Origin: Heliocybe sulcata
Taxonomy: Eukaryota > Basidiomycota > Agaricomycetes > Gloeophyllales > Gloeophyllaceae
NCBI GenBank assembly: GCA_004369045.1
Contig: ML213503.1
Location: 3,325,321 to 3,389,320, forward strand
Direction: 5' to 3'
Length of the DNA: 64,000 bases
This document shows, piece after piece, positions 54,319-57,300 of this stretch. The notes beneath the pieces are model-generated. The model worked only from the letters and a program-made list of their open reading frames with translations. It did no database searches and had not been told where the DNA came from. Both the position numbers and the translations under genes were made by a program. How positions within the stretch are numbered: position 1 is the first letter of the stretch; each line of letters starts with the position of its first letter.

Positions 54319-57300
54319 TTAATCCCACGAAGGAGATGTGCTGTAGGAATTATTCCTAGCATTGGAACCGTTCTGCTGCGCAGGACTAGTGGGAGACCAC
54401 TGCGGCGATGTAGGGCTGTACGCAGGCGAGGCCGGGGAGTACGTGGGAGCTAGAGGAAATGGACGTGAGTGCTGACATAAGAATTATAAGGACAAAAAGC
54501 AACTCACACGCGGGAGAATACGCTGGCGACGTGGGTGCTGCAAGAGTTTAAGTATTTCAACGGAACAGCTTTAGGGTAGGACTCACAATACTTTGGCGAG
54601 GTAACGTGAGCGGGAGACGTAGGGGAGTACTTCGGCGACGCTGGGGACATTTGCGCTGGAGCTATAGGGGCAGTGCGCATCAGCGGAAGAAGAGCATTAC
54701 TTGATAGAGGAACTTACAAGCTAGCAAGGTGAAGAGAAGGGGAGAGACAGACTCGTTTAGACATTTTCAAATAGAAAGATAAGGGGTGCTCACTTGGGGA
54801 ATCTGAAATGAATAGGCGAGCATAAGTGACAAAGTGACACATGAACAACACTAAGCACTTACACCTCGGGGAAGCAGGACTGAACGACGGACTCGTCGGC
54901 GAATAGCGAGGCGAAGTGGGGCTGAATGATGGAGACTGGGGACTGTACCGCGGCGAGGTGGGTGAGAACGACGGTGATGTAGGAGAGTATCTCGGACTGG
55001 TTGGCGAGTATCCAGGAGACGTGAGGTTGAGCGCAGGAGACGTCGGCGAGTATGTGGGAGAAGTGGGAGCTCGGCCACGATCGAAGAATGGCGATGTCGC
55101 ATATGGCGACGTCGCAAAGGGCGAAGTCGCCCCTCCGAAGGGAGAAGGCGGGACATAAGGAGACGTAGGAGAATACATACTCGGGGAGCTGGGGCTGTAA
55201 CCACCGGGTGCGCCAGGAGACATCCCTCCAGCACCAATGGGACTCTGCCCGAAGCCGAGGTAGGAGAAGTTTGCGGCGTCCTCGCCACTATTGACAGCAA
55301 GCGGGGAGAAAGCAGCAGATTCAGCCTTGAAGGCCCCCTCGTTGTTCCACATCGGGGAGTTGCTGTCGTACGGTGTCATCGCCACCTGCCCCGGCGTCAT
55401 ACCGCCGTCGACTTGTGCAGCAAGCATGTTCTGCACAGGTAGGCGGTGATCAACGATAACATCCTTCAACATGTCAATATCCAAAGCCACGTCGAAGGCG
55501 CCTGTACCCATGGGTGCCATCTGACCGAACATGACGTTCTCGGCGATGCCATGACAGTCGTCCTTCTCCCCTACAGCGGCCGCCTCCATCAATATCTCGA
55601 CAGTCTCCTCGAAAGAGCAGCGCATCAGGGCGCCCGTGTCGGCACGATTGATACCATGGCGGGTGATAGCCATCAGCGTCCCGCGATGGGTCATGAGGTC
55701 ACAAAGCAATGCCAAATGCCTGTAATTCACGTAAGAACCGTCGAACTCGATAACGCCACGCAACTCCTTCATGATGGCTGCTCGAGCAGCCTCAATACCC
55801 AGGACGTCGAAGATCTCCACGCAACTGTTGGAGTACGTGCGTTGGAAATCAACGCCGTCGACACACATAACCGTCTTTAAGTTGACACCATCTGTCTCCA
55901 GAACCCATTCCTTCTCTTGCTTCGCCTCAATGCTGCCCTCGGGAGTGATGACGACCTTGTCGTGCTCCAGCAAGAATACACGCTCGATATCCTTCACACC
56001 ACGCAAGCTGACTCCATTCAGCATAGTGTTCTCCAGTTGGCGCAAGAATATATCTTCTTCAACCGTGCCCATGTCGTCGTCCTTATCACCGCCGCCAAGC
56101 ACACGACACCGGATGATCAGCTTCTCAGAGTTGTCTTCACTCCATATGACAAAAAGATCAGTCTTGAAGCTCTCCGCGATTCTGCCCGCAACATAGGGCA
56201 TGGTCAGTTTTCGATCGATCATCTTCGCTCGGTCAAGCTCGAGACGAAGCAACCAAGGCGATTGCAGGTGAAGCTTGGATTCGATTTCCTCGTCGGGGAT
56301 AGCAAAGAAAGACTCGACGAAGACACGATCTTCCTCGATGATAGTAGAGCTCGGGTCTGGATCGTACCAGATCTCAACCGCAGCGGTGACGGTACGCAAC
56401 GACGTGTAAGCCAGCTCCTGCTGGACGTTCTTCGCAAGATATCTATCCTTGGCGAGGTCGGGCTCCAGATAGACAGTTAACGACGGAGTCTTGATGTGCG
56501 TGGCCACGTTAATGATCTCCTTGAGACGAGGTACACCTAGCGTGACGTTCTTGCTAGACACACCCGCGTAGTGGAAGGTGTTCAGCGTCATCTGGGTGGC
56601 GGGTTCACCAATAGACTGTGCCGCCAGAGTACCACACATTTCACCTGGATGGACGACCGATTGGTTGAACTTTGTCTCCACTTCACCGAGTACCCAATCG
56701 AAAGCTTCTCGGGTCAGATGGAACTCCTCTAAGACACGTCTTGTAGCAAATGTCGCACGTAAGTGCATACGGAAGGTTAATGTGGCGTTCGCTTGTGCCT
56801 CCTTACTCAACGGATCTTCGCCTCGTACGATGATGAGTCGATCCATGAGAGCCTTAACAGCATCCACAATGTACGTGGGCTCGAGGTCACTCGGCTTCCT
56901 ACGATCAATATGGAAGATCTGCGTGGCGTTCTGCACGATGCGGTGCAGGTTGACTGGCAAGTAGTGCGGGTTGCTGGGATCCGAGCGAGGGAAGACGAAG
57001 GCTCTCAGCATCCGTCGGTCGGCGACGAGTTGTCCGTACTCATCGTCCAGCTTCGACTGCAATTCGAGAGAACTATCGTCAATGCCCACCTGCAGGACAC
57101 CAGGAAGGAATCCGCCCTGCGGATCCGTGACATCGACGCGATACTTGTGCTCGAAGACGCGATCATTAAGGGCGAAGGTCTCAATGTTCTGGCGTTCGAT
57201 GAAGGCGCCGTCCATGCCGTCTTCGCCGTATACAAACTGAATGAGATCACCGAGCGAGTTTCGGACAGTTCCATCGTAGCAGACCATAACATCTTCCAAT

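What the first reader, a model, noticed from the sequence alone, without database searches (positions are those of the whole stretch)
54319..54863. RPB1 CTD assembled from microexons, including a 3-nt exon
After the large RPB1 exon, the CTD continues over exons of 9, 3, 75, 30 and 131 nt. The 9-nt and 3-nt candidates each sit between good splice sites, and the three introns around them are 60, 73 and 56 bp, like others here. Including both restores the heptad Y-S-P-T-S-P-A exactly, with codons split across the junctions. Skipping one or both also keeps frame, so CTD length and phosphorylation sites could be altered by splicing. A 3-nt exon is near the lower limit for splicing, and an intron-rich CTD in the subunit that organises co-transcriptional splicing is striking.
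Basis: partly seen in the sequence, partly recalled or inferred. Interest (0 to 1): 0.75.

Follow-up and report, generated by a model that had tools for sequence, protein, structure and literature searches.

The report
Tiny exons in polymerase II tail
In an unnamed fungus, one repeat of the tail of RNA polymerase II appears to be stitched together from four exons, two of them only 9 and 3 bases long; exons this small are rare but known, and nothing yet shows that the cell uses them as a switch.

Summary
On the minus strand the RPB1 tail runs through exons of 9, 3, 75, 30 and 131 nt, with GT-AG introns of 60, 73, 56, 49 and 58 nt, all phase 1. Including both microexons gives one exact heptad, YSPTSPA. 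Under a codon model trained on the upstream tail, inclusion of both beats nine-only, skip and three-only by 6.2, 7.7 and 8.5 nats. Of 20,000 random genomic stretches, 20 matched the splice-score gain and none could give the heptad; for the 3-nt exon alone, 3 of 40,000 matched gain and heptad. Limits: the preference depends on this genome's narrow intron lengths (with flat lengths the four forms lie within 2 nats, nine-only first), a generic codon model prefers a frameshifted path, and no RNA or related genome was available. Two other predicted microexons here (12 and 15 nt) align gap-free with solved homologues. Exons of 1 nt are in print. So this is a new member of a known kind, probably constitutive. 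Regulated skipping is unsupported: it removes one of 17 heptads, and skipped exons were 3% of alternative splicing events in one fungal survey.

The parts
54863..58301 (-). Large RPB1 exon (3439 nt) ending in phase 1 with ...SPASPR + T
   Evidence: Continuous match to S. pombe Rpb1, query residues 37-1191; exon limits
54803..54862 (-). CTD intron 1, 60 nt, GTAAGT...TTTCAG; no in-frame stop, so its retention would keep frame
54794..54802 (-). 9-nt microexon ATTCCCCAA
   Evidence: acceptor 94th and donor 47th percentile; codes Y-S-P and the first base of T
54721..54793 (-). CTD intron 2, 73 nt, GTGAGC...TGCTAG; only a weakly placed branch-like motif (TTCAC, 10 nt)
54718..54720 (-). 3-nt microexon CTT
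   Evidence: acceptor 39th and donor 73rd percentile; completes T and starts S5 of the heptad
54662..54717 (-). CTD intron 3, 56 nt, GTAAGT...CTATAG, CTGAT 19 nt from its end
54587..54661 (-). 75-nt CTD exon
54538..54586 (-). CTD intron 4, 49 nt
54508..54537 (-). 30-nt CTD exon
54450..54507 (-). CTD intron 5, 58 nt
54319..54449 (-). Last exon, 131 nt with stop, ends ...SPSWD

Best explanation
One CTD heptad of RPB1 is encoded across four exons: the end of the large exon, a 9-nt exon, a 3-nt exon and the start of a 75-nt exon. The three short introns (60, 73, 56 nt) are each recognised across the intron, and the two microexons are joined, most likely constitutively, to give an unbroken YSPTSPA. 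Because factors are unlikely to sit on both sites of a 3-nt exon at once, the introns beside it are probably removed one after the other; removing either leaves the other's sites intact. Shown: sequence, frame, site scores, heptad, and two homology-supported microexons elsewhere in this genome. Inferred: that the splicing happens, its order, that it is constitutive, and an origin by successive intron insertion into repeat DNA.
For: Exact coordinates and frame. Site percentiles. Posterior 0.997 among 233 paths with a codon model trained on 112 upstream CTD codons. Margin reached by 0 of 3000 shuffles and 20 of 20,000 genomic stretches, heptad by 0 of 20,000. 3-nt exon alone: 3 of 40,000 for margin and heptad, 13 of 40,000 for a 3-nt exon at that margin. 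Pfam repeat score highest with both. Introns of 132 or 201 nt would be outliers: 12 of 624 predicted introns are 130 nt or longer. 12-nt and 15-nt microexons elsewhere align gap-free to homologues, as do the 80-, 22-, 48- and 61-nt exons of the RPB1 core.
Against: No RNA and no related genome. With a flat intron-length model nine-only scores 39.5, skip 38.6, both 38.5, three-only 37.5. A generic codon model prefers keeping intron 2 as part of an 85-nt exon, out of the CTD frame (0.956 against 0.006 for both). Intron 2 has the weakest acceptor of the five and no good branch-like motif. The tail has other irregular units ([14 protein letters not shown]), so a broken heptad would not be unheard of here.
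Confidence: 0.84

Rival explanations
1. Only the 9-nt exon is real. CTT between AG and GTAAGT is a chance decoy inside one 132-nt intron, and the protein reads YSPTPA.
For: With flat intron lengths this path scores best by about 1 nat. In 4937 of 20,000 random 132-nt stretches some microexon path beats the single intron, so the length penalty does much of the work.
Against: 6.2 nats worse with the observed length distribution. Only 13 of 40,000 stretches offer a 3-nt exon this good and 3 of 40,000 offer gain and heptad together. Pfam 70.2 against 74.9 bits.
Confidence: 0.08
2. Both microexons are decoys; one 201-nt intron is removed and the tail reads SPASPRSPAQM.
For: Keeps frame. The donor and acceptor are good. 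The tail holds other irregular units.
Against: 7.7 nats worse; 201 nt is an outlier length (10 of 624 predicted introns are 200 nt or longer); restoring the exact heptad by chance was 0 of 20,000.
Confidence: 0.04
3. Intron 2 is kept, giving an 85-nt exon and a frameshifted, shorter tail ending at 54386.
For: Preferred by the generic codon model. Intron retention is the commonest fungal alternative splicing type in PMC3925392 (passages).
Against: Loses six further full heptads and the ...SPSWD end that the downstream exons encode in the CTD frame; with the CTD codon model it is not among the six best paths. May exist as a minor form.
Confidence: 0.02
4. The microexons are real and form a regulated switch that changes the CTD.
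For: The four internal CTD exons (9, 3, 75, 30 nt) are multiples of three between phase-1 introns, so any skip keeps frame. A microexon switch is reported for Xlr2 in Trichoderma virens (PMC11121469, abstract and passages). Intron 2 has the weakest acceptor of the five.
Against: One heptad of 17 at stake. Skipped exons are 3% of fungal alternative splicing events in PMC3925392. With predicted phase counts 250, 211, 168, five introns in one phase has a chance of about 0.016 by my arithmetic, on a test chosen after seeing the data.
Confidence: 0.05

Closest known systems
1-nt exon of CYP621A in Fusarium (PMC12940212; two of three text parts read)
   Same: Fungal ultra-short exon inside an interval about twice the usual intron length, needed to restore a conserved motif.
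   Different: 1 nt, required for frame, conserved in many orthologues and backed by reads; here 9 and 3 nt, frame-neutral, one genome, no reads.
1-nt exon of Arabidopsis APC11 (PMC4674806; passages)
   Same: Constitutive ultra-short exon; intron definition argued.
   Different: Plant; tested in vivo.
3-bp micro-exon of Drosophila hth (PMC7392893; abstract)
   Same: Exon of 3 nt.
   Different: Alternatively spliced as the first 3 nt of a 48-bp exon, with isoform-specific functions.
Microexons of Phanerochaete chrysosporium P450 genes (PMC1184071; passages)
   Same: Small exons, down to 6 bp, between short introns in a basidiomycete.
   Different: Different gene family; 3 nt is smaller.
Plant microexons of 1-15 nt (PMC8831610; passages)
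   Same: Many ultra-short coding exons missed by annotation, including adjacent 5- and 12-nt exons in rice.
   Different: Backed by RNA-seq and conservation; plants.

Membership tests
[quoted passage not shown]
   3h0g, 1561 bits over query residues 37-1191; core fragment against 5x4z, 347.7 bits
[quoted passage not shown]
   17 heptads of the form [YFW]SPxSPx; Pfam PF05001
Microexon (coding exon of about 15 nt or less) | Canonical acceptor and donor around it and introns of usual length | tested here: met
Microexon (coding exon of about 15 nt or less) | Restores the expected protein | tested here: met
   exact heptad YSPTSPA
Microexon (coding exon of about 15 nt or less) | Present in mature transcripts | not testable with these tools
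   no RNA data held
Microexon (coding exon of about 15 nt or less) | Conserved in relatives | not testable with these tools
   no relatives held; scans returned archaea, bacteria and viruses
Regulated cassette microexon | Frame-neutral length | tested here: met
   9 and 3 nt
Regulated cassette microexon | Isoforms that change with condition | not testable with these tools
   no RNA data held
Introner-like intron family | Introns alike in sequence | tested here: not met
   10 pairs of the five CTD introns compared, best 30 of 300 shuffles as good; longest other match in 264 kb is 16 nt

The most novel reading that the evidence does not exclude
The frame-neutral phase-1 CTD exons (9, 3, 75, 30 nt) form a splicing-tunable tail: when splicing capacity changes, the number of CTD repeats made changes, so the subunit that recruits the splicing machinery senses that machinery through its own pre-mRNA, a feedback loop.
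Probability: 0.05. Interest if true: 0.75.

Novelty: new member of a known kind. Interest (0 to 1): 0.36.

Why it matters
If spliced as inferred, two adjacent ultra-short exons build one repeat of the Pol II CTD. Automatic annotation is likely to shorten or shift such a tail, so CTD comparisons that rest on predicted fungal proteins may carry errors of this kind. The locus is also a natural test of how intron definition copes with a 3-nt exon.

Tried and rejected
Relatives: the large exon against viral contigs gave one pattern match and no relative. A conserved 91-residue piece gave 313 relatives in genome contigs, of which the best 80 were kept, all titled as archaea or bacteria, and 6 viral loci. 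Of these 86 loci, L105-L107 (viral) carry CTD heptads and L058 and L100 one heptad-like match each; none is a fungal RPB1.

Rfam over the window: no match at gathering threshold. Introner idea: not supported. Gene finder as proof: dropped. In one search it picked both microexons unforced, but in a wrong frame, after placing introns at 57487-57543 and 55133-55176 in this gene that I judge false (the unspliced frame matches S. pombe Rpb1 across the first; the second lies in CTD repeats). With introns in the large exon forbidden it chose the 85-nt exon that keeps intron 2. Of its 16 predicted exons of 15 nt or less, two are the RPB1 pair; of the other 14 I checked three: two supported, one (proline dehydrogenase-like, 10 nt) had no solved-structure hit at E 0.001 and a Pfam hit without residue view. 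The other 11 were not checked; one is a 0-nt exon and some sit in doubtful gene models.

Full report
What was checked. The window lies in an unnamed 31.6-Mb assembly of 51 contigs with no relatives held; the CTD region has one match there. The gene on the minus strand is RPB1: the large exon matches S. pombe Rpb1 at 1561 bits. A core fragment that spans predicted exons of 80, 22, 48 and 61 nt matches the solved RPB1 chain 5x4z; the one single-residue gap lies before those small exons. A likely start codon is at 60891.

Anatomy. The large exon ends at 54863 in phase 1. Then follow exons of 9 (54794-54802), 3 (54718-54720), 75, 30 and 131 nt; the introns are 60, 73, 56, 49 and 58 nt, all GT-AG. 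Since the internal exons are multiples of three, all five introns are in phase 1. The joined protein reads ...[89 protein letters not shown]. The heptad after SPASPR is written over four exons: T / ATTCCCCAA / CTT / CTCCAGCG.

Splice sites. A self-trained gene finder on 264 kb (window plus the 200 kb) gave 624 introns with the CTD introns left out; median 55 nt, 95th percentile 71 nt; 16 are 100 nt or longer, 12 are 130 or longer, 10 are 200 or longer. Donors of introns 1-3 lie at the 59th, 47th and 73rd percentile, acceptors at the 94th, 39th and 56th. Branch-like motifs: CTTAT at 21 nt in intron 1, CTGAT at 19 nt in intron 3, only TTCAC at 10 nt in intron 2 and none in intron 4; 76% of predicted introns have YTNAY and 39% CTRAY within 10-50 nt of the end.

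Which path. Among 233 enumerated paths, a codon model trained only on the 112 upstream CTD codons gives 0.997 to both, 0.0021 to nine only, 0.00045 to skip and 0.0002 to three only. Against my reading: the generic codon model gives 0.956 to a path that keeps intron 2 and reads the rest of the tail in another frame to a stop at 54386, and 0.006 to both. I discount it because the downstream exons hold six more full heptads in the CTD frame, which generic codon usage scores poorly. Also against: with flat intron lengths, nine-only, skip, both and three-only score 39.5, 38.6, 38.5 and 37.5, so the narrow intron-length distribution of this genome is an essential part of the argument.

Chance. In dinucleotide shuffles of the interval, 73 of 3000 let some microexon path beat the single intron, 0 of 3000 by the real 4.3 nats, and 0 of 1500 could give the exact heptad (2 of 1500 a relaxed one). 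The real interval also allows a second relaxed heptad, YSPISPA, through TCT at 54749-54751; that path is not among the six best. In 20,000 real genomic stretches placed between the real ends, 514 beat the single intron, 20 reached the real margin and none could give the heptad. For the 3-nt exon within the 132-nt interval, 4937 of 20,000 beat the single intron, 284 reached the real margin and 224 could give the heptad irrespective of score; 13 of 40,000 had a 3-nt exon at that margin and 3 of 40,000 had margin and heptad together. The 9-nt exon is the firmer of the two.

Precedent within the genome. The gene finder proposed 16 exons of 15 nt or less among 512 internal exons. Outside RPB1 I checked three of 14. 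A 12-nt exon at + 43620-43631 in a MutS-family gene (MSH4-like by my recall) lies in a gap-free block, ilrnyvrpef against akernfvrpef-type sequence of MutS 5x9w. A 15-nt exon in L006 encodes part of ATQDIAVDGWALT, identical in acetyl-CoA transporter 1, 9m0s. A 10-nt exon in a proline dehydrogenase-like gene stayed unresolved. So at least two other microexons in this genome have homology support.

Function. Skipping both removes YSPT: 17 to 16 [YFW]SP units, 44 to 43 SP dipeptides. That is a small change to a repeat domain, and in PMC3925392 (passages) skipped exons make 3% of fungal alternative splicing events and retention 61%. Beyond frame-neutral lengths I see no support for regulation. How splicing could proceed: intron definition, as argued for the 1-nt exon of Arabidopsis APC11 (PMC4674806, passages). 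That factors cannot occupy both sites of a 3-nt exon at once, and that the introns leave one after the other, is inference.

Comparison. Exons of 1 nt are published for Arabidopsis and Fusarium CYP621A, 3 nt for Drosophila hth (abstract), 6 bp upward for Phanerochaete P450 genes (passages), and adjacent 5- and 12-nt microexons in rice (passages). The phenomenon is known; its place, one Pol II CTD heptad split over four exons, did not appear in my ten searches, which cover open-licence papers and capped listings.

Verdict. Observation confirmed; inclusion of both microexons likely (0.84); regulation unsupported. A new member of a known kind.

Noticed in passing
window 43620-43631 (+): Predicted 12-nt exon in a MutS-family gene; its residues align gap-free with MutS.
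   Followed up: yes
L006 6849-6863: Predicted 15-nt exon in an acetyl-CoA-transporter-like gene; its residues are identical in 9m0s.
   Followed up: yes
window 35522-35531 (+): Predicted 10-nt exon in a proline dehydrogenase-like gene (Pfam PF01619); not resolved against a homologue.
   Followed up: partly
window 54803-54862 (-): CTD intron 1 is 60 nt with no in-frame stop, so its retention would add 20 residues and keep frame.
   Followed up: no
L105, L106, L107: IMG/VR contigs encode RPB1-like proteins that end in CTD-type heptads (6, 5 and 9 matches to the heptad pattern).
   Followed up: partly
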